DNA from: Clostridia bacterium
GTDB taxonomy: Bacteria; Bacillota_A; Clostridia; Christensenellales; Aristaeellaceae
DNA length: 64,000 bases
Direction: 5' to 3'
Assembly (NCBI GenBank): GCA_017397695.1
Contig: JAFQIF010000066.1
Span: 1 to 64,000, forward strand
Made by a program: the position numbers and the translations under genes. The notes beneath the pieces are model-generated. The model had not been told where the DNA came from and searched no databases. It saw only the letters and a program-made list of their open reading frames with translations. This document shows positions 3,104 through 61,455 of the stretch, one piece after another (the stretch's first letter is position 1; every line of letters starts with the position of its first letter).

Positions 3104-3119
3104 CATGGTATAAGCGATT

Positions 3120-3151
3120 CGGGCAGCTTCACTGGAGAGGCTGCCCGTTTT
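3120..3151 (+). terminator. Intrinsic terminator after glpK
   Basis: CGGGCAGC (3120-3127) pairs with GCTGCCCG (3140-3147) around a 12-nt loop, followed by TTTTCC. It starts 17 bases past the glpK stop. Confidence 0.8.
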
Positions 3152-3278
3152 CCTGCATCTGGACGCAGAATCTGCCGAAACGTGGCAATAATGCAAGGAT
3201 ATAGAGGAAAAGGTGAAAATTATTCGCGGTGATCCTGCAAATTGTTCAAGTTTTCGTCAGAATCAGACGGCATAATAC

Positions 3279-10761: not shown

Positions 10762-12879
10762 TTACATGCTCTTGCGCTCGGCGATCTCGGCCATCTTCGC
10801 GTCGTTGAGGCGGCTCTGGCCGTGTACGCGGGAATAGGAGAGATAGCCATTCATGCGGTCGATCTTGGTGAGGTTTGTGCTGCCGCACTCGGGGCAAACA
10901 TCCATTTCCAGCTGCTGATGACCGCAGTCATCACAGTAGGCCAGCGAGAGGTTCACACCCTCATAGAAGCCCATCTGCATCGCGCGGCGAACCAGTGTAC
11001 GAATGGCTTCCTTGTTGTAGCCGATCGGATAACGAACGTACTGGATCTTGCCGCCGTTGGAGAGATCCCAGAAGCGTTTTTCGCTGTTCTGCTTTTCGAT
11101 CGGTGTGATCTCTTCGGTTACATGGCAGTGGAAGGAGTTGGACACATACGGCTTGTCGGAGACATTCTCCACGATGCCGTAGAGCTTGCGGAATTGCTCA
11201 ATCTGAAGGCCGCACAGGCTTTCTGCCGGCGTGCCGTAGATGGCGTAAAGGTTGCCGTCTTCCTTTTTGAACTGCGCAATCTTGTCATTGATGTGCTGCA
11301 TGACCTCAAGGGCAAACTGACCGTCTTCACGGATACTCTTGCCGTTGTAAAGCTCCTGCAGCTCGTTGAGCGCGGTATAGCCGAAGGATGCGGTGGCGTA
11401 TTTAAGCAGAGGCTTGATTTTGTCGTACAGGCCCAGATGACCGCCGTAGAAGCCGCCCTCGCAGTAAGCCAACGGATTGGTGCTCGCACGCATTTCTCCG
11501 AGATACGCATAGGTACGGATATGCAGCTTGCGGATCAGCTCCAGATAATAGTCGAGCACCTCGTAGAAATCGCGATTCTCCTTGCGCGCCTTGGCCAGGA
11601 TCAGCGGCAGATGCAGCGATACTGCACCGATGTTGAAACGGCCCACGAACACCGGCTGATCATTCTCGTCCGCAGGCTCCATACCGCCGCGCTCAAACCA
11701 CGGAGAGAGGAACGCGCGGCAGCCCATCGGGCTGATAGTCTGGCCATACTTTTTGTAAATGCTGGATACATAGCCTTCGCCGGTCAAACTCAGCCAATCG
11801 GGATACATTGTCTTGGAGGAGCACTCGATACCCGCTTCAAAGACATCCTCCAGCGGCTTACCGGGGCCGTGCAGGTCCTCGTCATAGAGGAAGACAAGCT
11901 TGGGGAAGAGAACAGGCTTTTTGTTGTTCTTTTTTCCTTGACCTCCGGCATGCACCTTCAGGAACAGTTTGCTGGCAAGCTTGGCCATACGCGTCTGGCC
12001 AAGGCCGAGCGTCATGGTGATGAAGGGATAATCGCCGCGGCTAGAGGCCACGGTGTTGAATTTGTATTCCCAACCCTGGAAGCCCTGCTCAAAGTCATTG
12101 ATGATATCCTTCATCGCTTCCTCGTGTGCACGATCATCGGAAAGCCCCAGGGAGCGGTAACGATCCAGGAAGAGCACATAGCTGCGTTCAGCGTAGGGAT
12201 CAAGCAGCTGATCCACGCTGGAAACGGTGAAGCCGCCGTACTGTTGGCTGGCTGCAGAGAGCACGATATCGCCGATGACGTCGAAGGCGACGTTGAGCGT
12301 TTTGGGCTCGTTATACCAAAGGTTGCCCATCTCAAAGCCACCCTTGAGCACCTCGCCGACATTGAACAGGCAGCAGTTCATGGTGTCCCGGCGGGCAGAC
12401 TGATCGTGGATGTAGATATAGCCGTCGCGCTGGGCCTGAAGCTCTTCAACATTGAGGAAAAACTTCTGGTAGAGCTGCTTGTTAAGCTGGTTGAAGATCA
12501 GGCTGCGGCGGGTAGAAACCAGCGCGCTGTCTGCATTGGAGTTCTCCTTGTCTCCGATGTACATGATCGACTGGCTCTTCTTGTAGACGGTATCGAGCAT
12601 CTGCACGAAATCGGTCTTGTAGTTGCGGTAATCGCGGTAGGATTTGGCCACAGCGGGGCTGATAGCATCCAGCGCACCCTCCACAATGTTGTGCATCTGC
12701 GCAATGTGCACGCCTTCGGTGTCGAGCGATTCACATTTTTCTGTGACAAAACGACAGATGAAGTCAAGATCTTCTTTAGAGAAGGTGTACAGCACGCGCT
12801 CGGCACTCTTGTTTACTGCGGCGACAACCTTATTTACGTTAAACGGATCTTTTGTACCGTCCTTTTTGATGATGTACAT
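10762..12879 (-). CDS. nrdD: Anaerobic ribonucleoside-triphosphate reductase
   Basis: Class III ribonucleotide reductase: converts NTPs to dNTPs in the absence of oxygen using a glycyl radical. The ATG at 12879 follows AAGGGGG and gives 705 aa. Residues 1-95 form the ATP-cone (MYIIKKDGTKDPFNVNKVV...), the allosteric activity switch. The barrel includes QSARRDTMNCCLFNVGEVL, GQTISPMGCRAFLSPWF and RASTNPLAYCEGGFYGGHLG. A zinc ribbon near the end has CDDCGHQQLEMDVCPECGS, and the glycyl-radical loop is RMNGYLSYSRVHG, with the radical at the Gly of NGY. NrdG lies downstream. Upstream are a promoter and paired NrdR-like boxes, so NrdR repression is likely. Confidence 0.97.
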   Translation of the reverse strand: MYIIKKDGTKDPFNVNKVVAAVNKSAERVLYTFSKEDLDFICRFVTEKCESLDTEGVHIAQMHNIVEGALDAISPAVAKSYRDYRNYKTDFVQMLDTVYKKSQSIMYIGDKENSNADSALVSTRRSLIFNQLNKQLYQKFFLNVEELQAQRDGYIYIHDQSARRDTMNCCLFNVGEVLKGGFEMGNLWYNEPKTLNVAFDVIGDIVLSAASQQYGGFTVSSVDQLLDPYAERSYVLFLDRYRSLGLSDDRAHEEAMKDIINDFEQGFQGWEYKFNTVASSRGDYPFITMTLGLGQTRMAKLASKLFLKVHAGGQGKKNNKKPVLFPKLVFLYDEDLHGPGKPLEDVFEAGIECSSKTMYPDWLSLTGEGYVSSIYKKYGQTISPMGCRAFLSPWFERGGMEPADENDQPVFVGRFNIGAVSLHLPLILAKARKENRDFYEVLDYYLELIRKLHIRTYAYLGEMRASTNPLAYCEGGFYGGHLGLYDKIKPLLKYATASFGYTALNELQELYNGKSIREDGQFALEVMQHINDKIAQFKKEDGNLYAIYGTPAESLCGLQIEQFRKLYGIVENVSDKPYVSNSFHCHVTEEITPIEKQNSEKRFWDLSNGGKIQYVRYPIGYNKEAIRTLVRRAMQMGFYEGVNLSLAYCDDCGHQQLEMDVCPECGSTNLTKIDRMNGYLSYSRVHGQSRLNDAKMAEIAERKSM

Positions 12880-12923
12880 CGGTATCCCCCTTTGCGCGTC
12901 TTGTGGAAAACTATTGTGCATAA

Positions 12924-12971
12924 ACACTATATCTTGTGCGTTAAATTATTCTCAAACACAATATTTAGTTC
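12924..12971. promoter_or_regulatory. Pair of NrdR-box-like sites upstream of nrdD
   Basis: ACACTATATCTTGTGC (12924-12939) and ACACAATATTTAGTTC (12956-12971) each resemble the 16-bp NrdR consensus acaCwAtATaTwGtgt. They start exactly 32 bp apart, three helical turns, the spacing known for cooperative NrdR binding. They lie between the nrdD promoter -10 element and the nrdD start. The first site is a good match, the second weaker in its right arm. Confidence 0.65.
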
Positions 12972-12984
12972 GCTATTGGTGTTC

Positions 12985-13013
12985 ATCTTATCATGAAAGC
13001 TACTGCCCGTCAA
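12985..13013 (-). promoter_or_regulatory. Sigma-A promoter for nrdD
   Basis: Read on the minus strand: TTGACG (13013-13008), 17-bp spacer, TAAGAT (12990-12985). The transcript would begin over the NrdR-like boxes, consistent with repression. Confidence 0.7.
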
Positions 13014-14738: not shown

Positions 14739-15356
14739 TCAGGCGTTCTTTTTGCCCTTCAATTTGCTGAAATCCAGCTTGTTTTCGCTATGGTTCATCA
14801 GGCGCTTGATGTTCGCCCTGTGGCGCCAGATGACAGAAGCGCCGATGCAGGCAGTGATGATCCAGAGCTTAGGATCGTGCCAGTGGGTGAAAACCACCAG
14901 CAGCGGCAGCGTCACGGCAGCCGCGACGGAACCGACAGAGACGTAATGCGTCACGCCGACCAGAATCAGGAACACCGTGAATGCCAGCAGCGCCTGAATC
15001 GGGAAGACGAACAGCAGGCTGCCAAAGCTGGTTGCGATACCTTTGCCGCCCTTGAAGCCAAAATACAGTGGGTAATAGTGGCCAAGCACCGCGCCAACCA
15101 CGCCCAGCAGGCCGCCCAGTTCGCCGCCGATCAGTCCCTTTCCGATGAATACCGCAATAATGCCCTTGAGCATATCGCCGATGAACGTAAAGAGTGCAGC
15201 TTTGCGTCCGAGGATGCGCAGCATGTTGGTCGTACCGGCATTGCCGCTGCCTTGCTTGCGGATGTCCGTCTTGGCAAACATCTTGGAGATTACGACGCCG
15301 GTGGAGATGCTGCCCAGCAGATAACCGATACCGATTACGAGAATAGTGTTGAGCAT
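14739..15356 (-). CDS. plsY: Acyl-phosphate:glycerol-3-phosphate acyltransferase
   Basis: Integral membrane enzyme that transfers an acyl group from acyl-phosphate to glycerol-3-phosphate, the first step of phospholipid synthesis. 205 aa with about five membrane segments. The three signature motifs are present: YLLGSISTGVVISK with IRKQGSGNAGTTNMLR, then GHYYPLYFGFKGGKGIATSFG, and the C-terminal SVIWRHRANIKRL. The ribosome site AGGAGGA (minus strand) lies inside the end of der, with 6 bases between the genes, so the two are translated as a unit. Confidence 0.96.
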   Translation of the reverse strand: MLNTILVIGIGYLLGSISTGVVISKMFAKTDIRKQGSGNAGTTNMLRILGRKAALFTFIGDMLKGIIAVFIGKGLIGGELGGLLGVVGAVLGHYYPLYFGFKGGKGIATSFGSLLFVFPIQALLAFTVFLILVGVTHYVSVGSVAAAVTLPLLVVFTHWHDPKLWIITACIGASVIWRHRANIKRLMNHSENKLDFSKLKGKKNA

Positions 15357-15362
15357 GGGGGA

Positions 15363-16694
15363 TTAGTCCTCCTTCTGGTTCTTCTGGCGCAGGATGAACT
15401 TGAGCGGCGTGCCTTCGAATCCGAAGGACTTGCGGAACTGGTTTTCCAGATAACGCTGATAAGCGAAGTGCATCAGCTTTTCATCATTGACGAAGAACAC
15501 GAACGTCGGCGGGCATACGCTTTGCTGTGTTGCGTAATAGATTTTCAGATGCCTGCCGGCAGAGAAGGGCGGCTGCAGCGCTGCCGTTGCGTCGGCGAGT
15601 ACGTCGTTAAGCAGACCTGTGGTGATGCGGCGGGAGGTTTGCTCGTAAACAGCCTTCACACTCTCCAGCACCTTGGGTACGCGCTGGCCCGTCAGCGCAG
15701 AGATGAAGAGCACCGGCGCATAGTCCATGAACTTGAGGTCCTCGATCACCTGCTTGCGGTAGGCCTCCATGGTGTTGGTGTCCTTTTCCACGGCGTCCCA
15801 CTTGTTGACGACAATGATGGCGGCCTTGCCTTCCTCGTGCACATAGCCTGCGACCTTGGTATCCTGTTCGGTCACGCCGTCTTCGGCGTTGATCACGATC
15901 AGCGCCACATCGCAGCGGCGAACGGCGGTCAGCGCGCGCACGATGGAATAGCGTTCGATGGATTCCTCCTCGATGGCGCGCTTGCGGCGGATGCCGGCGG
16001 TATCAATAATGTTGTAGCGCTGGCCGTCGCGGGTGAAGGCAGTATCGATTGCGTCGCGCGTGGTACCGGCGATATTGGAGACCATGGAGCGCTCCTGGCC
16101 GAGGATTTTGTTGACCAGGGAACTCTTGCCCACATTCGGGCGGCCGACGACGGCGATCTGGATGGTGTGCTCATCCTCCTCGATATCCTCGCTGCCCTCG
16201 GGGAAATGCTTGACCATTTCGTCAAGAAGATCGCCAAGGCCGAGCAGGTTGACGGAGGAAATCGGGAACGGATCGCCCAGACCCAGATTGTAGAACTCAT
16301 AAATGTTGTCGGACATGCTCTGGTTGTCCACTTTGTTGACAACCAGGATGACCGGCTTGCGGCTCTTACGCAGCATCGTGGCGACGTCCTCGTCGTCTGC
16401 AGTCATACCGGTGCGGCCGTCAGTGAAGAAGAGGATCACATCACAGGTTTCGATCGCGATCTCTGCCTGGCGGCGCATCTGCTTGAGCATGATATCGTCA
16501 GTCTTGGGCTCGATACCGCCGGTGTCGATCAGCGTGAACTTGTAATTGAGCCATTCGCAGTCCGCGTAGATGCGGTCGCGGGTAACGCCAGGCGTATCCT
16601 CAACGATAGAGATGCGCTTCTTGGCGATCTTGTTAAAGAAAGTGGATTTGCCGACGTTCGGCCTGCCGACGACAGCAACAAGGGGCTTTGCCAT
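15363..16694 (-). CDS. der: Ribosome-associated GTPase Der (EngA)
   Basis: Double-GTPase needed for 50S ribosomal subunit assembly. 443 aa with the family layout: first G domain with GRPNVGKSTFFNK, DTGG and NKVD; second with GRPNVGKSSLVNK, DTAGIRRK and NKWD; then a KH-like C-terminal domain from about residue 350 (KIYYATQQSVCPPTFVFFVN). The ATG at 16694 follows GGAGGAC on the minus strand and is 3 bases downstream of the DUF512 gene. The DUF512-der-plsY order is a familiar one in Clostridia. Confidence 0.97.
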   Translation of the reverse strand: MAKPLVAVVGRPNVGKSTFFNKIAKKRISIVEDTPGVTRDRIYADCEWLNYKFTLIDTGGIEPKTDDIMLKQMRRQAEIAIETCDVILFFTDGRTGMTADDEDVATMLRKSRKPVILVVNKVDNQSMSDNIYEFYNLGLGDPFPISSVNLLGLGDLLDEMVKHFPEGSEDIEEDEHTIQIAVVGRPNVGKSSLVNKILGQERSMVSNIAGTTRDAIDTAFTRDGQRYNIIDTAGIRRKRAIEEESIERYSIVRALTAVRRCDVALIVINAEDGVTEQDTKVAGYVHEEGKAAIIVVNKWDAVEKDTNTMEAYRKQVIEDLKFMDYAPVLFISALTGQRVPKVLESVKAVYEQTSRRITTGLLNDVLADATAALQPPFSAGRHLKIYYATQQSVCPPTFVFFVNDEKLMHFAYQRYLENQFRKSFGFEGTPLKFILRQKNQKED

Positions 16695-16697
16695 GGT

Positions 16698-18005
16698 TTA
16701 GTCCTCCGTTCCGCGCAGTGCGTAGAGCAGATCCGCGCCGTCATCGGGAACGGGACGGATTCTGATGCCCAGCTCGCTTTGCGCCTGGTCAAGCGTCATG
16801 TCATCCAGGAAGATATCTTCGCCTTCCCTGAGCATGCTCTCGGTAATCAGTATTTCATCCGCTTCTATGCCTTTAAGCTGGCTTACCAGATCCTGCCCGG
16901 TAATCAGGCCGGATACGGTAACCGTTTCGCCGAAGAAGCGGTTGACGATGGGTTTGATGGTGATATCGACATTGGGGATAGGGTGGCACGCCAGCAGGTC
17001 ACGCATGAAGGGTGCAACCGATGTGCCTGTCGCCATGATCACGCGGCGTGCACGGATTTCGCTCTCGTCGGGATCAAGCCGCGCTGCAGTTTCAAATTCG
17101 TCGCGTAGTCTGGCCAGAAGCCCCACGCCGTTTTCAAACTGCGGGAAATCTTCATAACTCTCTGCATCCGGGATTTCAAGCCCGGCAATCTGATAGAATT
17201 CATCAGAGGGGAATACGAAACGCGTTCCATGCTCACGGAGCATCTTTTTCTGGAAGGCCTCAGCCTGGAGAACGACCTCATGCGCCTCTTCTTTTGTGTA
17301 GGGGCGCAGCGGATAAAGATGCTCACGATAGCGTGTAAGCCCCACGGGCACCAGCGCCACGGTGAGCGCATGCGGCGCAAGGGATGCCAGGTCGCCAAGC
17401 GTCTTGTCCAGTTCGCTGCCGTCGTTGATGCCGGGGCAGAGCACGACCTGGCAATGGAAGCTCATGCCATTGTCGGCAAAACGTGTAAGATGCTCCATGA
17501 TCCTGTCCGCATGGACATGAGAGAGCATTTTGTTGCGCAGGTTGCCGTTGGTCGTATGCACGGAGATGTAGATCGGGCTGGCTTTGCGCTCGATCATCCG
17601 ATCCATTTCGTGCTTGGGCAGATTGGTCAGCGTTACAAAATTACCCGCCATCAGCGATAGACGCCAGTCATCATCGCGTACATACAAGCTCTCGCGCATG
17701 CCCGGCGGCATTTGTTCAATGAAGCAGAACATGCAGTGATTGGCGCAGGTCTTGGGGCAGCTCATCAGGTTTGATTCAAGTGTAAGGCCCAGTGCATCTT
17801 CCGTGCGCTTGTGAATGTGCACGGTGCGCTGCGTTCCGTCCTCCTTTTCAAGAAGAAGCTCCAGCGACGGACGTGCGGTCAGATACTGATAATCCACCAG
17901 GTCGAGCACAGGTGTGCGGTTGATGGAGATGAGCGTTTCGCCATGGCTGATGCCGTGCCTTGCGGCCAGTGAACCGGGGAACACGCTGACAATGCGCTGG
18001 GACAT
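16698..18005 (-). CDS. DUF512 radical SAM protein with N-terminal PDZ-like domain
   Basis: 435 aa. Residues 1-70 resemble a PDZ domain (VFPGSLAARHGISHGETLISINRTPV). A radical-SAM-like cluster follows in CPKTCANHCMFCFIEQMPPGMR, with the extra cysteine typical of this family, then FVTLTNLPKHEMDRMIERK and SPIYISVHTTNGNLRNKML. The C-terminal half is the DUF512 domain, ending with a gly-rich MATGTSVAPFMRDLL and SMLREGEDIFLDDMTL. The biochemical role is not established; its constant neighbour Der suggests a link with ribosome assembly or rRNA/protein modification (inference). First gene of the operon, with promoter at 18045-18073. Confidence 0.93.
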   Translation of the reverse strand: MSQRIVSVFPGSLAARHGISHGETLISINRTPVLDLVDYQYLTARPSLELLLEKEDGTQRTVHIHKRTEDALGLTLESNLMSCPKTCANHCMFCFIEQMPPGMRESLYVRDDDWRLSLMAGNFVTLTNLPKHEMDRMIERKASPIYISVHTTNGNLRNKMLSHVHADRIMEHLTRFADNGMSFHCQVVLCPGINDGSELDKTLGDLASLAPHALTVALVPVGLTRYREHLYPLRPYTKEEAHEVVLQAEAFQKKMLREHGTRFVFPSDEFYQIAGLEIPDAESYEDFPQFENGVGLLARLRDEFETAARLDPDESEIRARRVIMATGTSVAPFMRDLLACHPIPNVDITIKPIVNRFFGETVTVSGLITGQDLVSQLKGIEADEILITESMLREGEDIFLDDMTLDQAQSELGIRIRPVPDDGADLLYALRGTED

Positions 18006-35141: not shown

Positions 35142-35498
35142 ATGGAGAAAAAAGCCGAACGATCGATTGTTTTGCTTGCTGTGCTCTTCGTCTTCGCCTG
35201 TTTGCTGCTTAGCGGCGGTTGGCGGCTGATCGGCACTTCCTGCGAGGCCTCCCCTGATTCAGTCCGGCAGCAGATGCCGGTCCGGGCAGCGATTACGAGT
35301 ATGCCTGCGCCTTGCTCAGAACTGGGCGCAGCGCCGACCCGCGGACAGATTGCACTGCGATTTGTAGCCGCACCTGCCTCGGAAAACCTCAACCTGAGCC
35401 TCTGTGTATTGTGTGATGCCAACGGCAACGTGCTCGCCGGCAAAACATATCTGCACACGGTGTATCAGGCATTTACGCTGGGTGACGGGTTTGTGTAA
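35142..35498 (+). CDS. Hypothetical exported or membrane-anchored protein, 118 aa
   Basis: Not recognised. The ATG at 35142 has GAGAGGAGG upstream. MEKKAERSIVLLAVLFVFACLLLSGGWRL-like N-terminus: a basic head followed by one hydrophobic segment (residues about 8-28), either signal or anchor. The rest is a small domain with ALRFVAAPASENLNLSLCVL and CDANGNVLAGKTYLHTVYQA, suggesting a beta-rich extracytoplasmic fold; three to four cysteines occur outside. It is 58 bases before secD with no terminator between, so it heads the secDF transcript from a strong promoter. Confidence 0.7.
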   Translation: MEKKAERSIVLLAVLFVFACLLLSGGWRLIGTSCEASPDSVRQQMPVRAAITSMPAPCSELGAAPTRGQIALRFVAAPASENLNLSLCVLCDANGNVLAGKTYLHTVYQAFTLGDGFV

Positions 35499-35556
35499 GA
35501 AACGCAGAGTTTCTGCATAAACACCGATCAAACAAGATAAAGAGAGGAAAATCACT

Positions 35557-36819
35557 ATGGCGAACAAGAACGCAAAGCAGAAGAATCCGCGCACCCGCGC
35601 GATCGTCTCGCTCGTTGCCATCCTGGTGGTTGTCGCGGTCTGCGGATACGTGGCGCTGTTTGGTATCGGCAAGGGTACGATGATCAATTACGTAAAGCCC
35701 TGGGGCGAAGCGATCTCCCTGGGTCTTGACCTGCGCGGCGGCGTGTATACCGTGTATGCTGCGGATAACGATGGCAGTGCCGACTTCGAGACGAAGATGA
35801 GCTCTACCGTTTCTATCCTTACCAGCCGACTGACCCGTCAGGGCTTCACCGAGGCGACCGTGACCCGCCAGGGTACCGATCGCATCCGTGTTGAGATTCC
35901 GAACGTGTCTGATCCGAACGAGATTCTGCGTATCATTGGTACCCCGGCTCAGCTGGATTTCATGGATGAAGCCGGCAATGTGCTCATGGAAGGCTCCATG
36001 ATCAAGAATGCTGCCGCTTCTCAGGATGAGAACGGCCTGCCGTGCGTGGCCTTCGAGCTTAATGATGAGGGCGCGAAGATCTTTGCTGAGGCGACCGCTG
36101 CGAACCTGAACAAGACCATCGCGATCACGCTGGACGGTGAAGTGATCTCTGCGCCAACCGTCAATTCCGTTATCGCGGGCGGTCAGGGCCAGATTACCGG
36201 CAACTTTACCGCTGACGAGGCCAAGAACCTGGCGACCCTCATTCTCTCCGGCGCTCTGCCGCTGAATCTGACCCAGCTCGAGGTCAGCGCTATCTCTGCG
36301 ACCCTGGGTGTTGAGGCGCTTGATAAGGCGATTCTCGCTGGTGCGATCGGCGTGGCGCTGGTCATGCTCTTCATGCTTTTCCGTTACCGCATCTGCGGTC
36401 TGGTGGCCGATATCGCGCTCGCTATCTATATCATGGCTGTCGTGCTGCTGCTGGCGCTTACCGGTGCGCAGCTGACTCTGCCGGGCGTTGCGGGTATTAT
36501 CCTGGGCATCGGTATGGCTGTCGACGCGAACGTTGTCATCTTCGAGCGTATCCGCGAGGAACTTAAGGTTGGCCGTCCGCTGCCGTCCTCCATCAAGAAG
36601 GGCTTCGCCAACGCGCTGACCGCAATCATCGATGCGAACGTTACCACCATCATTGCGGCTGTTGTGCTCTATGCCTTCGGTACCGGCACCATCCGTGGTT
36701 TTGCGCTTACGCTGGGCATCGGCGTTGTGACTTCTATGTTCACTGCGATCTTTGTTACCCATAAGCTCCTGGATATCTTTGCCGACCTGGGCATCAAGAA
36801 CCAGAAGCTCTACGTGTAA
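35557..36819 (+). CDS. secD: Protein translocase subunit SecD
   Basis: Membrane partner of SecYEG that uses proton flow to pull exported proteins outward. 420 aa, the short form common in Clostridia. One N-terminal membrane segment (residues about 13-35), then the SLGLDLRGGVYTVYA signature, the periplasmic-type P1 region with IEIPNVSDPNEILRIIGT-like block, and five C-terminal membrane segments with GIGMAVDANVVIFERIREEL. secF follows after 17 bases. Confidence 0.96.
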   Translation: MANKNAKQKNPRTRAIVSLVAILVVVAVCGYVALFGIGKGTMINYVKPWGEAISLGLDLRGGVYTVYAADNDGSADFETKMSSTVSILTSRLTRQGFTEATVTRQGTDRIRVEIPNVSDPNEILRIIGTPAQLDFMDEAGNVLMEGSMIKNAAASQDENGLPCVAFELNDEGAKIFAEATAANLNKTIAITLDGEVISAPTVNSVIAGGQGQITGNFTADEAKNLATLILSGALPLNLTQLEVSAISATLGVEALDKAILAGAIGVALVMLFMLFRYRICGLVADIALAIYIMAVVLLLALTGAQLTLPGVAGIILGIGMAVDANVVIFERIREELKVGRPLPSSIKKGFANALTAIIDANVTTIIAAVVLYAFGTGTIRGFALTLGIGVVTSMFTAIFVTHKLLDIFADLGIKNQKLYV

Positions 36820-54698: not shown

Positions 54699-54763
54699 GA
54701 AGCGTAACATTTTACTTCAATTCCTTAAGTAATGGATTGAAAAGTGAAGGGAGGAACTTGTCT

Positions 54764-56083
54764 GTGGCTACTACCCAGACATTTGGCGGCGGCGTCCATC
54801 CTCATGAGATTGGCAACGGTAAAAACTCGACCCAGTCTCAGCCGATTGTGAACGCGGCTGCCCCGGCTCGAGTGACGATTGCCATGTCCCAGCATCTGGG
54901 CGCCCCTGCGGCGTGCTGCGTGAAGGTGGGTCAGGTGGTCAATATGGGCCAGGTCATCGGTGAGGCGCAGGGATTCATTTCTGCGCCGGTTCATGCATCT
55001 GTTTCCGGTAAGGTTGTTGCGTTGACGACCTGCGTCCTTGCTACCGGTAAGAGCGTGCCTGCCGTTGTGATCGAGAACGACTATGAGGATCGCTGGGACG
55101 AGTCCGTCAAGCCGTGCGAGAATGTTGATGCGCTCAATGCACAGGATATCATCAAGATTGCGCGTGACTGCGGTGTTGTCGGCCTTGGCGGTGCAACGTT
55201 CCCGACCTTTGTCAAGCTTGATAACAGCAAGCTTGATCCCAAGCCGGATACGCTTGTGATTAACGGCAGCGAATGTGAACCGTATTTGACCAGCGATCAT
55301 CGCCTGATGGTTGAGAATGCCGCTCAGGTGATCGATGGTATCCGCTTTGCGATGAAGGCGCTTGATATCAAGTGCGCCAAAGTTGGTATTGAGGACAACA
55401 AGCCGGACGCCATTGAGGCGATGAAGGCTGCTGCGACCGAGGGTATCGAGGTTGTTGCGCTGCCGGCGAAGTATCCGCAGGGCTATGAGAAGATGCTCAT
55501 CTATGCTCTGACCGGTCGCAAGGTGCCCAATGGCAAGCTGCCCAGCGCTGTTCAGTGTGTTGTGATGAACGTGGCGACCTGCGCCGCGCTGTCCGATGCG
55601 GTGCGCAAGGGTCAGCCGATTATCGATCGCGTCGTGACCGTTGCCGGTCGTGTGGCCAATCCGTGCAATCTGCGTGTTCGCATCGGTGTTGATCTGCTGG
55701 ATGTGATCGATCAGGTTGGCGGCATGACCGAAGGCGTGCGCAAGCTGATCTGCGGCGGTCCGATGATGGGCAGAACGATGTCCACCCTCAATACGCCGAT
55801 TACCAAGAATTTCAGCGCTTTCCTGCCGCTGGGCGATGAGAGCGTCAGCCCGGAGGAGTCCGCCTGCATCCGTTGCGGCCGTTGTTCCCGTGCCTGCCCG
55901 ATGGGCCTGATGCCGGCGAAGATGGACGCGCTCGTGCGCCATGGCGATTACGCCGGTGCGCTGGCTGCCGGTGCGCTCAATTGCATGGAGTGCGGCTCCT
56001 GTACGTATTCCTGCCCGGCCAAGCGTGAACTGCTGCAGGCCATCAAGGTTGCCAAGTGCATGGGCGGCAACATCAAGGCTTAA
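54764..56083 (+). CDS. rnfC: Rnf complex subunit C (electron transport complex protein RnfC)
   Basis: NADH/ferredoxin side of the Rnf ion-pumping ferredoxin:NAD oxidoreductase. The GTG at 54764 (AGGGAGGA upstream) gives 439 aa starting ATTQTFGGGVHPHE after the initiator. A Rossmann-like FMN/NADH part (VINGSECEPYLTSDHRLM, VGIEDNKPDAIEA) is followed by SLBB-type ICGGPMMGRTMSTL and two 4Fe-4S motifs, CIRCGRCSRACPMGLMP and CMECGSCTYSCPAKREL. Five more rnf genes follow with gaps of 0-24 bases. Confidence 0.97.
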   Translation: MATTQTFGGGVHPHEIGNGKNSTQSQPIVNAAAPARVTIAMSQHLGAPAACCVKVGQVVNMGQVIGEAQGFISAPVHASVSGKVVALTTCVLATGKSVPAVVIENDYEDRWDESVKPCENVDALNAQDIIKIARDCGVVGLGGATFPTFVKLDNSKLDPKPDTLVINGSECEPYLTSDHRLMVENAAQVIDGIRFAMKALDIKCAKVGIEDNKPDAIEAMKAAATEGIEVVALPAKYPQGYEKMLIYALTGRKVPNGKLPSAVQCVVMNVATCAALSDAVRKGQPIIDRVVTVAGRVANPCNLRVRIGVDLLDVIDQVGGMTEGVRKLICGGPMMGRTMSTLNTPITKNFSAFLPLGDESVSPEESACIRCGRCSRACPMGLMPAKMDALVRHGDYAGALAAGALNCMECGSCTYSCPAKRELLQAIKVAKCMGGNIKA

Positions 56084-56104
56084 TAGTTACGGAGGAACGT
56101 GAAA

Positions 56105-57049
56105 ATGTCTAAGTATGTTGTTTCGTGTTCTCCGCATCTGCGCGACAATGTGTCGACCAGGAGCATCATGCAGGACGTGTGCCTTGCGATGCTGCCTGCC
56201 TGCCTCGTCGGTGTGCTGTTCTTCGGTTACCGCGCGGCAATCATCCTCGTATTGTCTGTTGCGGCTGCGGTTCTGAGCGAAAAGTTCTACTGCAAGGCTG
56301 CTCATATTAAGGATACCACCGGCGATTTCAGCGCTGTGGTTACCGGTATGCTCCTGGCGATGAACCTGCCGTCCACCGTTCCGTACTGGATGCCGGTGAT
56401 CGGCAGCATCATTGCGATTCTGCTGTGCAAGATGATCTTCGGCGGCATCGGCCAGAACTTCATCAACCCGGCCCTGGCTGCCCGTGCGATTCTTGCGCTG
56501 TCCTGGGCGAGTGTTATGAACACCTTCGCCGCTCCGGCGTTTGGCAATCTGGCGGGTGTGGATACCATTGCTTCCGTTACGCCTGTTTCCGGCGCTGCCA
56601 ATGGCAGCTTCACCCTGGCTCAGCTTGCGCTGGGCAACATTCCGGGTACCATCGGCGAGACCTGTAAGATCGCGCTGCTGCTGGGCGGTGCATACCTGTT
56701 GTATAAGAAGGTCATCACCTGGCACATTCCGGTGGCATTCATCGGTTCTTTCGCCGTGTGCTATCTGCTCTTCACCGGCTTTGATGTGAATGTTGCACTG
56801 TATCAGGTTCTCTCCGGCGGCCTGATCCTGGGCGCGTTCTTTATGGCGACCGACTATTCGTCTTCTCCGACGACTGCCAAGGGCAAGATCATCTTTGGTC
56901 TGGGCTGCGGTCTGCTGTTGTTCTGGTTCCGCTTTGGCAAGAAGGCCCCGGCAGAGTGGTGCTCCTTCGCCATCCTGCTGATGAACGTCGTGTCTCCGCT
57001 AATCGAGCGTGTGACCGGCACCAAGAGCTTTGGGGAGGTTAAGAAGTAA
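56105..57049 (+). CDS. rnfD: Rnf complex subunit D, membrane flavoprotein
   Basis: 314 aa from ATG 56105 (GGAGGAAC nine bases upstream; the GTG at 56099 is too close to it). About nine membrane segments. A covalent FMN is expected on a threonine: VDTIASVTPVSG near residues 160-170 takes the place of the usual S-G/A-A-T-P motif and keeps the threonine. MATDYSSSPTTAKG, a hallmark of RnfD/NqrB, is present. The rnfG start overlaps its stop by one base (TAATG). Confidence 0.95.
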   Translation: MSKYVVSCSPHLRDNVSTRSIMQDVCLAMLPACLVGVLFFGYRAAIILVLSVAAAVLSEKFYCKAAHIKDTTGDFSAVVTGMLLAMNLPSTVPYWMPVIGSIIAILLCKMIFGGIGQNFINPALAARAILALSWASVMNTFAAPAFGNLAGVDTIASVTPVSGAANGSFTLAQLALGNIPGTIGETCKIALLLGGAYLLYKKVITWHIPVAFIGSFAVCYLLFTGFDVNVALYQVLSGGLILGAFFMATDYSSSPTTAKGKIIFGLGCGLLLFWFRFGKKAPAEWCSFAILLMNVVSPLIERVTGTKSFGEVKK

Positions 57050-59154
57050 TGGGTGACATTTTTAAGCTCGCGCTTCGTCTCTTCGTGTTCGCGCTTGTGG
57101 CTGCCGTCGCGCTGGCGATGACTAACGAAGTGACCAAGGGCCCGATCGAGGCCCAGAAGCTCGCCGCCAAGATGGAAGCGCTCAATACCGTGCTTCCGGG
57201 CTGCGAATATGCTCAGATTGAATATGAAGGCCTGGCTGAGGGCAGCACCCTCGACGAGATCTTCGAAGCCAAGGATGCTTCCGGTGCGACCGTTGGCTAT
57301 GCGCTGACTGCTGCGCCGCAGGGCTACGGCGGACCGATTCCGATCACCGTCGGCATCAGCACCGAAGGCCACATTACCCAGACTTTTGTTGGCGCTCTGC
57401 AGGAGACCGCCGGTCTGGGCACCAAGGTTGGCGAGGCTGACTTCAAGGATCAGTTCATCGCCATTGCTGCCGATCCGGATACCCTGAATGATGACGTCGA
57501 TACCATCGGCGGCGCGACGGTTTCTTCCAGCGCGTTCGTGAATGCGGTTTCCGAGATCCTTACTTATTCTAAGAACACTTTGAACATCGCGCCTGCTGCG
57601 GGCGATAAGGAAGCCATCCTTGCGGCGGCCGCTGCTGCCGCTGGCAATGCTGAGCCTGTGATCACCACCAACACCTACGACGTTAACGGCTTTGGCCCGA
57701 TGAAGGTTGAGGTAGCGGTTGACGACGCTGGTAAGATCGTGTCCGTGAAGGTCCTTGAGCATGGCGAGACCCCGGGCTTCGGTGCGGATCTGATTGCGGA
57801 TACCGCGGTCTTCGATGCGCTGGTTGGTCAGGATATCGCTGGTGCTGCGATCGATGTGAAGGCTGGCGTGACGATGACCTCTAAGGGCATCAATGCTGCA
57901 CTGAAGGCTGCCGGTCCGCAGGTTCCGACTGATCCGTACACCGTTAAGGGCTTTGGCAAGTTCACCATGAACGTTGCTGTGCAGGACGGTGCAATCGCTG
58001 CGATCAATGCCCCGGTTCATAACGAGACCCCGGGCTTCGGTGCGGACATCCTCACCGAGGACGCGCTGGCTTATCTGGTTGGTCAGGACATCGCGACCGT
58101 GCAGGTCGATATGAAGTCCGGCGTAACCATGACCTCCAATGCGATTGCTGACGCGCTCAAGCAGGCTGCTGCTGCCAACGGCATCGTGGTGGAGGCTGCT
58201 GAGGCTGCTCCGGCTGCCGATGTGACTTCCTCTGCGTCCACTGCCACTGCCGCCCCGGCTGCTGCTGAGACCGCTGCCGCCGGTAACGTCTACGACGTGA
58301 AGGGCTTCCAGCCGATGAAGGTTGCTGTCGATGTGGATGCTGACGGCAAGATCGTGTCTGTGAGTGTTGTCGAGCACAACGAGACTCCGGGCTTCGGCGC
58401 TGACCTGATCGGTGCTGGCTTCGATGCGCTGGTTGGTCAGGACATCGCGACTGCGGCGATCGACGTGAAGTCCGGCGTGACGATGACCTCCAATGGTATG
58501 AATGATGCGCTGAAGGCTGCTGCCGCCGCTGCTCCGGCTGCTGAGGCTGCTCCGGCTGCTGCCGGCAACGTCTACGACGTGAAGGGCTTCCAGCCGATGA
58601 AGGTTGCCGTTGAGGTTGACGAGGCTGGTAAGATCGTTTCCGTCGCCGTGACCGAGCACAACGAGACCCCGGGCTTTGGCGCTGACCTGATCGGCGCGGG
58701 CTTCGATGCGCTGGTTGGCCAGGACATCGCGACCGCAGCGATCGATGTGAAGTCCGGCGTGACGATGACCTCCAACGGCATCAATGAGGCGCTGAAGGCT
58801 GCTGCTGCTGCCGCTCCGGCCGCTGAGGCTGCTCCGGTTGAGGAAGCTGCTGCTGTGACTGCCGAGGTTGCCAAGGTATATGAAGTGTCAGTGATGGGCA
58901 TGAACAGCAAGCATCCGCTCACGCTGAGCATCTCTGTGGATGCCGAGGGCGTGATTGTCTCTGCTGTCTGCACGGATAGCAGCGAGGATAGGGGCGCTGC
59001 CGCTCTGGCTGAGGAAGCGCTTGCTGCGTTGGTTGGCCAGAACATCACCGATGCCAAGTATGATACTGTTGCCGGTGCGACTGTCACCAGCAACGCTGTC
59101 AATCAGGCGCTTGATACGATTGCGGCTTATGTCCGCGCTGAGGAGGTGCAGTAA
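57049..59154 (+). CDS. rnfG: Rnf complex subunit G with six FMN-binding modules
   Basis: Membrane-anchored flavoprotein that carries electrons outside the membrane in Rnf. Known RnfG proteins are about 200 aa; this one is 701. Residues 1-180 are a normal RnfG: membrane segment 8-24, QETAGLG, and flavin motif DTIGGATVSS (Thr157). Five more FMN_bind-like modules follow: about 207-288 (AGVT, Thr275), 295-374 (SGVT, Thr360), 413-492 (SGVT, Thr478), 507-585 (SGVT, Thr572), 609-695 (AGAT, Thr678). Modules 2-5 share GxETPGFGAD/HNETPGFGAD and LVGQDIA; module 6 has lost the ETPG part. Ala/Pro/Glu-rich linkers join them. Six covalent FMNs are possible, attached by an ApbE not encoded here (inference). 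Confidence 0.94.
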   Translation: MGDIFKLALRLFVFALVAAVALAMTNEVTKGPIEAQKLAAKMEALNTVLPGCEYAQIEYEGLAEGSTLDEIFEAKDASGATVGYALTAAPQGYGGPIPITVGISTEGHITQTFVGALQETAGLGTKVGEADFKDQFIAIAADPDTLNDDVDTIGGATVSSSAFVNAVSEILTYSKNTLNIAPAAGDKEAILAAAAAAAGNAEPVITTNTYDVNGFGPMKVEVAVDDAGKIVSVKVLEHGETPGFGADLIADTAVFDALVGQDIAGAAIDVKAGVTMTSKGINAALKAAGPQVPTDPYTVKGFGKFTMNVAVQDGAIAAINAPVHNETPGFGADILTEDALAYLVGQDIATVQVDMKSGVTMTSNAIADALKQAAAANGIVVEAAEAAPAADVTSSASTATAAPAAAETAAAGNVYDVKGFQPMKVAVDVDADGKIVSVSVVEHNETPGFGADLIGAGFDALVGQDIATAAIDVKSGVTMTSNGMNDALKAAAAAAPAAEAAPAAAGNVYDVKGFQPMKVAVEVDEAGKIVSVAVTEHNETPGFGADLIGAGFDALVGQDIATAAIDVKSGVTMTSNGINEALKAAAAAAPAAEAAPVEEAAAVTAEVAKVYEVSVMGMNSKHPLTLSISVDAEGVIVSAVCTDSSEDRGAAALAEEALAALVGQNITDAKYDTVAGATVTSNAVNQALDTIAAYVRAEEVQ
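58285..58848 (+). repeat. Tandem 282-bp duplication within rnfG
   Basis: 58285-58566 and 58567-58848 encode modules 4 and 5 with their linkers. The first 41 bases are identical and long blocks remain so; by eye only about seven of some 90 residues differ, and many base changes are synonymous. Modules 2 and 3 are more diverged copies. Confidence 0.9.
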
Positions 59155-59751
59155 ATGAAGGAGCTTCGCAAAATCTTCATGAACGGCATCATCGACGAGA
59201 ACCCCACGTTCCGCATGGTGCTGGGCATGTGTCCGACGCTGGCTATCACGACCGCTGTCAGCAACGGCATCGGCATGGGTCTGGCGACGACGGTTGTCTT
59301 GGTCTGTTCTAACCTGTTTATTTCTCTGCTTCGCAAGGTGATTCCGGATGAAATCCGTATTCCGGCGTTTATCGTGGTTATCGCGACGTTCGTTACCATT
59401 GTTCAGTTGGTCATCAAGGCGTTCCTGCCGGCCCTTGATGCTGCCCTGGGCATGTTCATTCCGCTGATCGTCGTAAACTGCATTATTTTCGGCCGCGCGG
59501 AAGCGTTTGCTTGCAAGAATAAGCCGCTTGCATCCATTGCTGATGGCCTCGGTATGGGTCTTGGTTTCACCTGCGCGATCACCCTGATCTGTGCTGTTCG
59601 CGAGCTGTTCGGTGCGGGCACCTTGCTGGGCGTGCAGGTGATGCCGACTAGCTACATGCCGATGGACTTGCTGGTTAAGCCGGCAGGTGGCTTCATCGTG
59701 CTGGGCCTGATGATGGCGCTCATGAACAAGCTGCTGCCCAAGAAGGCGTAA
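59155..59751 (+). CDS. rnfE: Rnf complex subunit E
   Basis: 198-aa integral membrane subunit with six segments. FRMVLGMCPTLAITTAVSNG, the NPTFRMVLGMCPTLA signature with its conserved cysteine, and EAFACKNKPLASIADGLGMG are typical of RnfE/NqrD. It starts directly after the rnfG stop (TAA-ATG), with GAGGTG inside rnfG as ribosome site. RnfE and RnfA form the inverted pair thought to hold an iron-sulfur centre at the membrane centre. Confidence 0.96.
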   Translation: MKELRKIFMNGIIDENPTFRMVLGMCPTLAITTAVSNGIGMGLATTVVLVCSNLFISLLRKVIPDEIRIPAFIVVIATFVTIVQLVIKAFLPALDAALGMFIPLIVVNCIIFGRAEAFACKNKPLASIADGLGMGLGFTCAITLICAVRELFGAGTLLGVQVMPTSYMPMDLLVKPAGGFIVLGLMMALMNKLLPKKA

Positions 59752-59763
59752 GGAGGAAAAGTA

Positions 59764-60339
59764 ATGGAACAGATTCTTACGATCCTGATTGGCTCTATCT
59801 TCGTTAACAACTTTGCGATGTCCCGCTTCCTGGGTATCTGTCCGTTCCTGGGTGTTTCTAAGAAGCTGGATTCTGCGTTTGGCATGGGCATGGCCGTTAC
59901 CTTCGTTATGGCGATGGCGTCTCTTGTCGCTTACATGGTTAACTCTTTCCTGCTTGTGCCGTTTGGTCTTGAGTATCTGCAGACGATCGCCTTTATTCTG
60001 GTTATCGCCGTGCTGGTTCAGATCGTCGAGATGGCGCTCAAGAAGATGATGCCGAGCCTGTATCAGGCGCTGGGCGTTTATCTGCCGCTGATCACTACCA
60101 ACTGTGCTGTACTGGGTGTTACTCAGCTGAATGTCACCGAAGGCTATAACCTGGTTCTGTCTGTCATCAATGGTACGGCTTCCGCTCTGGGTTTCACGCT
60201 GGCGATCTGCCTGTTCGCAGGTATCCGCGAGCGCCTGGCAGTTGGCAACATGCCCAAGTGGATGGATGGTTTCGTCGGTGCACTGCTGACTGCCGGTCTG
60301 ATGGCCGTGGCTTTCAACGGCTTCAGTGGTCTGATTTAA
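59764..60339 (+). CDS. rnfA: Rnf complex subunit A
   Basis: 191-aa membrane protein. IFVNNFAMSRFLGICPFLGVSKK and the NCAVLGVTQLNVTEGYN block are diagnostic for RnfA/NqrE; the cysteines in GICPF and TNCAV pair with those of RnfE. Strong ribosome site AAGGAGG, 12 bases after rnfE. Confidence 0.97.
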   Translation: MEQILTILIGSIFVNNFAMSRFLGICPFLGVSKKLDSAFGMGMAVTFVMAMASLVAYMVNSFLLVPFGLEYLQTIAFILVIAVLVQIVEMALKKMMPSLYQALGVYLPLITTNCAVLGVTQLNVTEGYNLVLSVINGTASALGFTLAICLFAGIRERLAVGNMPKWMDGFVGALLTAGLMAVAFNGFSGLI

Positions 60340-60363
60340 GCGTGGAGCGAGGAGGAAACAAAA

Positions 60364-61455
60364 GTGAGTATTACTGCTATTCTTGCCGCTGCGCTTGTCA
60401 TCAGTGTGATGGGTCTCGTTTTCGGCGCTCTGCTGGGCGTGACTGGTCGTGTTTTTGCGGTTCCGTCCAATCCCACTGTTGTTGCGCTGCGTGAATGCCT
60501 GCCGGGCGCGAACTGCGGCGCCTGCGGCTATCCTGGCTGCGACGGCTATGCTGCTGCCGTTGCCGAAGGCAAGGCTGAAGTCGGATCCTGCTCCGTCGGC
60601 GGCCCGAAGTGCACCGCTGCGATGGCTGAGATCATGGGTGTCTCCGCCAGCGCTGGCGTGCGCATGGTGGCGACTGTTGCCTGCCAGGGCTATGGCGATC
60701 ACTGCGCGGAGAAGAACTATCAGGGTATCACCGACTGTGTCGCTGCGTCCCTGATCAACAATGGCACTAAGGCCTGCCAGTATGCCTGCCTTGGTCTGGG
60801 CACCTGCGAGCGTGCCTGTCCGTTCGGCGCAATCCATGTCGATCCGGTGAAGAAGATCGCCGTTGTCGACAAGGAGAAGTGCCAGGGCTGTAAGAAGTGC
60901 GTTGCTGCCTGCCCGCAGCACGTGCTGAGCATGCAGCCTGACAACATCGTCGCACAGATTAAGTGCCACAATCCGGAGAAGGGCAACGCCCTAAAGGAGA
61001 AGTGCGATAAGGCCTGCGTTGGCTGCGAGGCCTGCGTGAAGTCCTGTAACTTCGGCGCGCTGACCATGGAGAATGGTGTTCCGAAGTTTGACTACGAGAA
61101 GTGCGTGGGCTGCATGGCCTGTGCCGATGCCTGTCCGACTGGTGCGCTGACTGCTCAGTATGAGCTGCGCAAGGAAGCGTACATTGATCCGGCCAAGTGT
61201 GTGGGCTGCACGCTGTGCGTCAAGCAGTGTAAGTTTGACGCTATTGAGGGCGCGCTCAAGCAGAAGCACAAGGTGCTGGGTGCCTGTACTGGCTGCGGCG
61301 CCTGTGCTGCGAAGTGCCCGCGCAAGGCGATTACCATGCGTGACCGTCGTGCTCCGCGCAACAAGATGGACAAGGTGAAGAAGGTTCCTGCAGCTCCGGC
61401 TGCTAAGCCTGCTGCTCCAGCGGCTAAGCCGGCTGCTCCTGCTGAGCAGAAGTAA
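60364..61455 (+). CDS. rnfB: Rnf complex subunit B, extended polyferredoxin
   Basis: Takes electrons from ferredoxin. GTG start at 60364 with GAGGAGG. A membrane segment (residues 3-30) is followed by the RnfB Fe-S domain with CLPGANCGACGYPGCDGYA and then ferredoxin-type clusters: CLGLGTCERACP, CQGCKKCVAACP, CVGCEACVKSC, CVGCMACADACP, CVGCTLCVKQC and CTGCGACAAKCP. That makes the N-terminal cluster plus six more, more than in minimal RnfB. The tail of about 25 residues is Pro/Ala/Lys-rich (VPAAPAAKPAAPAAKPAAP). 363 aa. Last gene of the operon. Confidence 0.95.
   Translation: MSITAILAAALVISVMGLVFGALLGVTGRVFAVPSNPTVVALRECLPGANCGACGYPGCDGYAAAVAEGKAEVGSCSVGGPKCTAAMAEIMGVSASAGVRMVATVACQGYGDHCAEKNYQGITDCVAASLINNGTKACQYACLGLGTCERACPFGAIHVDPVKKIAVVDKEKCQGCKKCVAACPQHVLSMQPDNIVAQIKCHNPEKGNALKEKCDKACVGCEACVKSCNFGALTMENGVPKFDYEKCVGCMACADACPTGALTAQYELRKEAYIDPAKCVGCTLCVKQCKFDAIEGALKQKHKVLGACTGCGACAAKCPRKAITMRDRRAPRNKMDKVKKVPAAPAAKPAAPAAKPAAPAEQK

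What the first reader, a model, noticed from the sequence alone, without database searches (positions are those of the whole stretch)
57049..59154. RnfG enlarged to six FMN-binding modules
Seen: 701 codons with no frame break, one canonical RnfG domain, then five further modules each ending in a [SA]-G-x-T motif (Thr275, 360, 478, 572, 678 besides Thr157), four with an ETPGFGAD loop. Known: RnfG carries one covalent FMN attached by ApbE, and multi-FMN extracytoplasmic proteins occur in bacteria. Inferred: this Rnf complex may carry a string of up to six flavins, extending electron flow outward or to an extra acceptor beyond NAD/ferredoxin exchange. This is the strongest candidate for a little-described system in the window.
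Basis: partly seen in the sequence, partly recalled or inferred. Interest (0 to 1): 0.82.

Follow-up and report, generated by a model that had tools for sequence, protein, structure and literature searches.

The report
Six-flavin RnfG of an Rnf complex
A bacterial membrane electron-transfer complex carries an enlarged outer subunit with six predicted flavin-carrying beads instead of one, a design already predicted in print, which may let the complex feed electrons to enzymes outside the cell membrane.

Summary
An intact 701-codon frame sits in a complete rnfCDGEAB operon: one RnfG domain plus five more FMN_bind modules, each with a flavin-attachment threonine (T157, 275, 360, 478, 572, 678). 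Modules 1-5 keep the known pocket residues; module 6 keeps the threonine but has lost three. AlphaFold gives beads on a string with no fixed arrangement. The idea is not new: Méheust et al. 2021 reported multi-flavinylated RnfGs, some in Christensenellales, and proposed a second path to extracytosolic acceptors. What I add: (i) in the 120 listed proteins (this one included) all 823 modules keep the acceptor residue; (ii) 619 of 823 have valine where the ApbE motif has alanine, a change that lowered flavinylation to about 50% elsewhere; (iii) in one order's sample, genomes with multi-module RnfG carry more other FMN_bind domains (median 3.5, or 2 without the centre genome, versus 0), not corrected for kinship; ten of ten proteins examined from close relatives are FMN_bind+FAD_binding_2; (iv) six close relatives have one Rnf and no detected NapH-like or ferric-reductase-like donor, but five have a DsbD-like rival. 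Best reading: a flavin relay from Rnf to extracytosolic reductases. New member of a known kind.

The parts
57049..59154 (+). rnfG, 701 aa, multi-module FMN-binding RnfG; overlaps the end of rnfD by one base and is followed directly by rnfE
57064..57120 (+). N-terminal membrane anchor (about residues 6-24, judged by eye) within a long predicted helix, residues 2-48
   Evidence: sequence; helix H2-48 in the model
57295..57576 (+). module 1, canonical RnfG FMN_bind domain, Thr157 in GGAT
   Evidence: matches 7zc6_G and 9eri_G
57670..57918 (+). module 2, Thr275 in AGVT, ETPGFG loop
57928..58170 (+). module 3, Thr360 in SGVT, ETPGFG loop; best sequence match to crystallised CbFMN4 domain 1 (8p2b)
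58282..58524 (+). module 4, Thr478 in SGVT, ETPGFG loop; 91% identical to module 5
58564..58806 (+). module 5, Thr572 in SGVT, ETPGFG loop
58870..59124 (+). module 6, divergent C-terminal class, Thr678 in AGAT, no ETPGFG loop, pocket residues replaced (M616, D647, A650)
54737..56083 (+). rnfC (RnfC_N, Complex1_51K, SLBB, 4Fe-4S)
56099..57049 (+). rnfD (NQR2_RnfD_RnfE)
59155..59751 (+). rnfE (Rnf-Nqr membrane subunit)
   Evidence: E and A told apart by gene order only (recalled)
59764..60339 (+). rnfA (Rnf-Nqr membrane subunit)
   Evidence: E and A told apart by gene order only (recalled)
60364..61455 (+). rnfB (FeS domain and several 4Fe-4S domains)

Best explanation
This is an Rnf complex whose RnfG carries its normal membrane-proximal FMN domain (module 1) followed by a flexible chain of five more FMN domains. 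Shown: the frame, the operon, the modules, the kept threonines and, in modules 1-5, the kept pocket residues. Inferred: ApbE, encoded elsewhere in the genome, attaches FMN to at least modules 1-5. Reduced-ferredoxin electrons that reach module 1 either return to NAD+ by the usual Rnf route or hop along the tethered flavins to FMN domains of secreted FMN_bind+FAD_binding_2 reductases. The cell could then pass electrons to organic acceptors outside the membrane while Rnf still builds an ion gradient. The number of beads would set reach and the number of docking partners, not direction, because several modules are nearly alike.
For: Six PF04205 stretches and an rnfG match over the whole profile, inside rnfC-D-G-E-A-B. 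In the model the last helix of modules 2-6 begins exactly at Thr275, 360, 478, 572 and 678, as in the SaFMN3-D2 crystal structure (PMC10339131, section read). Residues equal to CbFMN4-D1 Tyr11, Thr37, Leu40, Thr67 and Ser69 are Y/F, T, L/F, T and S/T in modules 1-5. In the 120 listed proteins, this one included, 823 of 823 modules keep the acceptor (822 Thr, 1 Ser, 15 of them read by eye). ApbE is in 7 of 7 relatives' genomes. Association in one order sample: FMN_bind matches outside RnfG have median 3.5 in 8 multi-module genomes against 0 in 29 single ones, p 0.0006; without the centre genome median 2, p 0.002; against singles plus the 7 fusion-sized frames p 0.0012 and 0.0042. Ten proteins with such matches, chosen by me from 20 fetched loci of the best-scoring matches in G001-G007, are FMN_bind+FAD_binding_2, 10 of 10. 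G001-G006 each have one RnfD homologue, no NapH-like Fer4_5 match and no Ferric_reduct match.
Against: No flavin has been measured. Modules 2-5 carry valine where the ApbE motif has alanine, a change that lowered flavinylation to about 50% elsewhere. Module 6 has lost three pocket residues. The model is weak at two flavin sites: pLDDT under 50 at residues 117-127 and 151-158 of module 1 and at 649-651 of module 6. A DsbD-like protein, another published donor for flavinylated proteins, is in 5 of the 6 relatives G001-G006; in G003 it lies about 2 kb from a two-FMN protein. Two genomes with long RnfG, G007 and G042, do have Fer4_5 matches. Within the order sample G104 (fusion class), G114 and G011 have one FMN_bind match in RnfG yet 13, 5 and 4 elsewhere, and G019 has a two-module RnfG and none elsewhere. 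The test is not corrected for kinship and multi-module genomes number only 8. No reductase and no apbE was found in the window, and its own genome is not held.
Confidence: 0.5

Rival explanations
1. The extra modules are flavinylated but serve as an electron store or redox buffer (or local oxygen scavenger) beside Rnf, not as a relay to reductases.
For: Modules 2, 4 and 5 are 78-91% identical, so similar potentials and no directionality are expected. SaFMN3, with three alike domains, showed a single potential of -184 mV, no sign of directionality, and reaction of the reduced form with dioxygen (PMC10339131, passages).
Against: The association with more FMN_bind matches elsewhere in the genome is not predicted by a simple store.
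Confidence: 0.2
2. The extracytosolic reductases are fed by a DsbD-like or other donor with small FMN proteins, and the long RnfG is unrelated to them; the genome-level association reflects shared ancestry.
For: DsbD_TM matches in 8 of 10 genomes searched (7 over the cut-off), 5 of 6 among G001-G006; in G003 it lies about 2 kb from a 218-aa two-FMN protein. Fer4_5 matches in G007 and G042. The Mann-Whitney test ignores kinship.
Against: G004 has a six-match RnfG frame and 29 FMN_bind matches in all without a DsbD match. G058 has 14 FMN_bind matches, no RnfD match and no DsbD match, but NapH-like Fer4_5 matches, as expected if some membrane donor is needed and may be swapped.
Confidence: 0.2
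3. Only some modules carry flavin; the rest (module 6 and perhaps the valine-motif modules) are spacers or binding domains produced by tandem duplication. (This can be true together with the relay.)
For: Module 6 lacks the Tyr11, Thr37 and Leu40 equivalents. Alanine to valine in the motif gave about 50% flavinylation in another protein. Module number varies from 5 to 8 among the 120 listed proteins, as expected of unequal recombination.
Against: The acceptor is kept in 823 of 823 modules, the divergent C-terminal class included, which spacers would not need.
Confidence: 0.3

Closest known systems
Multi-flavinylated RnfG in RNF clusters (Meheust et al. 2021, eLife, PMC8238504; passages read)
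   Same: An RnfG with more than one FMN-binding domain in an RNF cluster; the second-path proposal is the same.
   Different: The paper's Christensenellales subset carries a multi-haem domain; this protein has no CxxCH. The paper's supplementary tables were not read, so whether this protein or its relatives are listed there is unknown.
CbFMN4 and SaFMN3 multi-FMN proteins (Tong et al. 2023, PMC10339131; passages, one section)
   Different: Their genes are flanked by putative flavin transferase genes and are not described as RnfG; here the string is fused to RnfG, no apbE was found in the window, and four of six sites carry valine in the motif.
RnfG of C. tetanomorphum (7zc6_G) and A. woodii (9eri_G)
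   Same: N-terminal anchor and first FMN domain.
   Different: Those chains are 189 and 207 residues long; this protein has 701 with six FMN_bind modules.

Membership tests
RnfG (TIGR01947) | score over the family cut-off of 102 bits | tested here: met
   whole protein 175.2 bits, but summed over six stretches; the first 207 residues alone give 99.1 bits, just under the cut-off, over profile 2-186 of 187
RnfG (TIGR01947) | encoded with rnfA, B, C, D and E | tested here: met
RnfG (TIGR01947) | covalent FMN on the motif threonine | not testable with these tools
   motif and pocket residues present in module 1; no chemistry possible
Multi-flavinylated protein (as in PMC8238504: extracytosolic, more than one FMN-binding domain) | two or more PF04205 domains | tested here: met
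   six stretches, six threonines
Multi-flavinylated protein (as in PMC8238504: extracytosolic, more than one FMN-binding domain) | extracytosolic location | not tested
   inferred from the N-terminal anchor and from RnfG homologues of known structure; no signal or topology predictor was run
ApbE substrate, consensus D-x-x-[S/T]-G-A-[S/T] of review PMC12052999 | strict consensus at the sites | tested here: not met
   0 of 6 sites fit strictly: GGAT, AGVT, SGVT x3, AGAT; so these sites are motif-like only, and occupancy is open
ApbE substrate, consensus D-x-x-[S/T]-G-A-[S/T] of review PMC12052999 | an ApbE in the same genome | tested here: inconclusive
   own genome not held, none found in the window; 7 of 7 relatives have it
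Christensenellales multi-flavin/multi-haem RnfG | CxxCH haem motifs in the protein | tested here: not met
   0 CxxCH

The most novel reading that the evidence does not exclude
In a lineage of uncultured Clostridia, Rnf has become the main donor of an extracytosolic respiration. Its stretched RnfG, with five to nine FMN beads and a clade-typical valine attachment motif read by a co-adapted ApbE, acts as a flavin antenna serving a battery of secreted flavin reductases, so that ferredoxin-driven ion pumping is coupled to organic acceptors outside the cell rather than only to NAD+.
Probability: 0.25. Interest if true: 0.68.

Novelty: new member of a known kind. Interest (0 to 1): 0.38.

Why it matters
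If the relay is real, Rnf in these bacteria is not only a ferredoxin:NAD+ machine but an entry point for respiration at the outer face of the membrane, which could explain how genomes with many FMN_bind+FAD_binding_2 proteins power them. The natural variation in module number (5 to 8 in the 120 listed proteins; nine in L007) would also give a series for measuring electron hopping along covalent flavins.

Tried and rejected
Frame error or repeat mis-assembly: judged unlikely, because a second database entry on another contig has the same length and one residue different and the repeats are diverged, although relatives' contigs often end in this gene.

Side hits: Pfam matches such as DUF2889, Inhibitor_I78 and TonB_C (only Inhibitor_I78 reaches its cut-off) fall within or beside the repeated modules and were not treated as domains; nor were the similar accessions printed beside relatives.

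Thr-Thr distances: not attempted, because pTM is 0.29. A regular-expression tally missed 15 of 823 modules because of a C or G after the motif; reading those 15 showed that all keep the threonine.

An apbE look-up in the window by script used wrong-strand queries and was repeated with both strands (best E 0.11, no real match). Reductase queries hit only the rnfG region.

Limits of the association test. Of 121 genomes, 72 had an rnfG match; 46 of these were given to and 26 with weaker matches were not. Of the 46, G034 (rnfG at a contig end) and G058 (no RnfD match) were left out. The fusion class (7 genomes) was assigned by frame length (526-570 aa); only L051 and L055 were seen to hold an RnfD-like motif and an FMN motif in one frame. 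Counts for one search were read by hand and count domain matches, not proteins. The class-wide sample (157 genomes) was not followed by an FMN_bind count. PepSY-type donors and quinone synthesis were not searched.

Full report
Observation. The frame at 57049-59154 is intact and encodes 701 aa. Pfam finds six FMN_bind stretches. NCBIfam finds rnfG: 175.2 bits for the whole protein over six stretches, and 99.1 bits, just under the cut-off of 102 but over the whole profile, for the first 207 residues alone. The gene lies in rnfC-rnfD-rnfG-rnfE-rnfA-rnfB (54737-61455), overlapping rnfD by one base and directly followed by rnfE. On one side lie a MutS2-like gene, a trypsin/PDZ protease and spoIVA, on the other a serine hydroxymethyltransferase.

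Source. The record is not named and no whole genome is held for it. Relatives come from MAGs titled Clostridia bacterium (sheep and goat rectum), Christensenella sp. and Candidatus Ventricola sp., the last placed by NCBI in Eubacteriales incertae sedis.

Anatomy. Module 1 is the canonical RnfG domain. Modules 2, 4 and 5 are 78-91% identical to each other, module 3 is 50-54% identical to them, and module 6 is 37-39% identical to modules 2-5. Linkers of 31, 6, 36, 12 and 18 residues, mostly rich in Ala, Pro and Glu, separate the modules as I cut them. At DNA level modules 4 and 5 form a 282-base x 2.0 repeat at 86% match. The AlphaFold model (40-row alignment; mean pLDDT 67, pTM 0.29) gives, after module 1, five units of three strands and helices, the last helix of each starting exactly at the motif threonine. 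Confidence is moderate inside modules, under 50 at parts of module 1 (117-127, 151-158) and module 6 (649-651), and absent for the placement of modules. Foldseek's five matches with E up to 0.001 are RnfG chains; NqrC chains, CbFMN4 domain 1 (8p2b, E 0.011) and SaFMN3 domain 2 (8p2a, E 0.17) follow above that limit. By sequence 8p2b matches residues 298-376 at E 1.2e-5.

Pocket test. In crystals of multi-FMN domains the flavin is held by Tyr11, Thr37, Leu40, Thr67 and Ser69 of CbFMN4-D1 (PMC10339131, section read). The equivalents in modules 1-5 are Y/F, T, L/F, T and S/T. Module 6 has Met616, Asp647 and Ala650 in place of the first three but keeps Thr678 and Thr680. Its alignment there is less certain because it is the most divergent. 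Modules of this class are also seen at the C-terminus of P0002, P0017, P0026, P0034 and P0036, each with its threonine.

Conservation. The protein search scored 7998 candidates, found 887 at E up to 0.001, and listed 120, this protein included. A module profile finds 5, 6, 7 or 8 modules in 1, 28, 78 and 13 of the 120, 823 in all; 822 keep Thr and one has Ser at the acceptor place (15 read by eye). In 619 of 823 the residue before the acceptor is Val, in 198 Ala and in 6 Ser (my tally). The review PMC12052999 (passage read) says that this Ala-to-Val change in the Klebsiella fumarate reductase, like Gly-to-Ala, gave about 50% flavinylation. The 120 are close relatives, so counts are not independent. 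A Christensenella MAG (L007) encodes about 1097 aa with nine motif sites, eight Thr and one Ser.

Surroundings and flavin supply. All 49 ORFs picked were Pfam-scanned: apart from rnfG itself none gave FMN_bind or ApbE at E up to 1e-5. ApbE and reductase queries from relatives find nothing else in the window. The ORF choice was greedy, so a gene hidden under a longer antisense frame could have been missed by Pfam. Seven relatives' genomes all carry ApbE (7 of 7) and 13-29 FMN_bind matches each. Of 20 loci fetched for the best-scoring of these matches, I scanned ten with long frames; all ten are FMN_bind+FAD_binding_2. Most of these frames begin with a signal-like hydrophobic stretch (by eye). 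Not every FMN_bind protein is of this kind: L043 is a 381-aa FMN protein without a dinucleotide-binding motif.

Is the long RnfG linked to the reductases? In 121 genomes drawn from the order of G001, 46 of the 72 with an rnfG match were counted for FMN_bind: 8 had a multi-module RnfG, 7 a fusion-sized frame, 29 a single RnfG, and 2 were set aside. FMN_bind matches outside RnfG: 17 (G001, the centre), 6, 5, 2, 2, 11, 1 and 0 in the multi class; 0 in 20 of 29 singles. Mann-Whitney p is 0.0006, or 0.002 without G001; with the fusion class added to the singles 0.0012 and 0.0042. Exceptions: G104 (fusion class, 13 elsewhere), G114 (5) and G011 (4) with one FMN_bind match in RnfG, and G019 with two in RnfG and none elsewhere. 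In 157 genomes drawn from the class, 110 had an rnfG match at E up to 1e-12; only the centre genome and G211 (556 aa) had an rnfG frame above 400 aa, and G132 had two tandem matches in a 360-aa frame. So the long form looks rare outside this order, with the caution that contig ends can shorten frames.

Other donors. G001-G006 each have one RnfD homologue, on the contig of the long rnfG, no Fer4_5 match and no Ferric_reduct match (0 of 10). G007 and G042, also with long RnfG, do have Fer4_5 matches. DsbD_TM is present in 5 of G001-G006 and in G003 lies about 2 kb from a two-FMN protein. It is a genuine rival donor. PepSY-type donors and quinone synthesis were not searched.

Mechanism. Shown: operon, modules, kept acceptors, pockets 1-5. 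Inferred: flavinylation, hopping between tethered flavins, docking with reductases, and the ion gradient (established for Rnf; recalled and in PMC12052999, passage). The likeness of modules argues against a built-in downhill direction, as noted for SaFMN3 (PMC10339131, passage); direction would come from the acceptors.

Known or new. PMC8238504 (Meheust et al. 2021; [quoted passage not shown] PMC11334425 (2024, passages read) describes beads-on-a-string models. Five paper searches listed nothing whose title or abstract start reports an experiment on a multi-module RnfG; only listings and the passages named were seen, in an open-licence library. Hence a new member of a known kind, with a testable functional link.

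Noticed in passing
L051 (5182-6891) and L055 (5578-7200): Frames of 570 and 541 aa hold an RnfD-like motif and an FMN motif together, suggesting an RnfD-RnfG fusion; a protein with four CxxCH haem motifs is encoded downstream.
   Followed up: partly
L047 7107-10565: A 1153-aa frame with three FMN motifs and four CxxCH motifs about 2 kb after the rnfG match; resembles the multi-flavin/multi-haem proteins reported in 2021.
   Followed up: no
L054 147-3032 (-): A 962-aa frame with a signal-like start and four DVAAGATWTS motifs.
   Followed up: no
L001, L002, L003, L005, L006 (contig ends), L008 (contig start): Draft contigs break inside the repeated part of rnfG, so databases may under-count such proteins and their modules.
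   Followed up: partly
L046 (G034:C11, first bases): A genome with 46 FMN_bind matches has an FMN_bind frame beside rnfD that is cut off by the contig end after its first module, probably rnfG.
   Followed up: partly
window 1637-3196 (-), 10822-12996, 14790-17108, 35473-36762 (-): Large ORFs without any Pfam match at E up to 1e-5; not examined.
   Followed up: no
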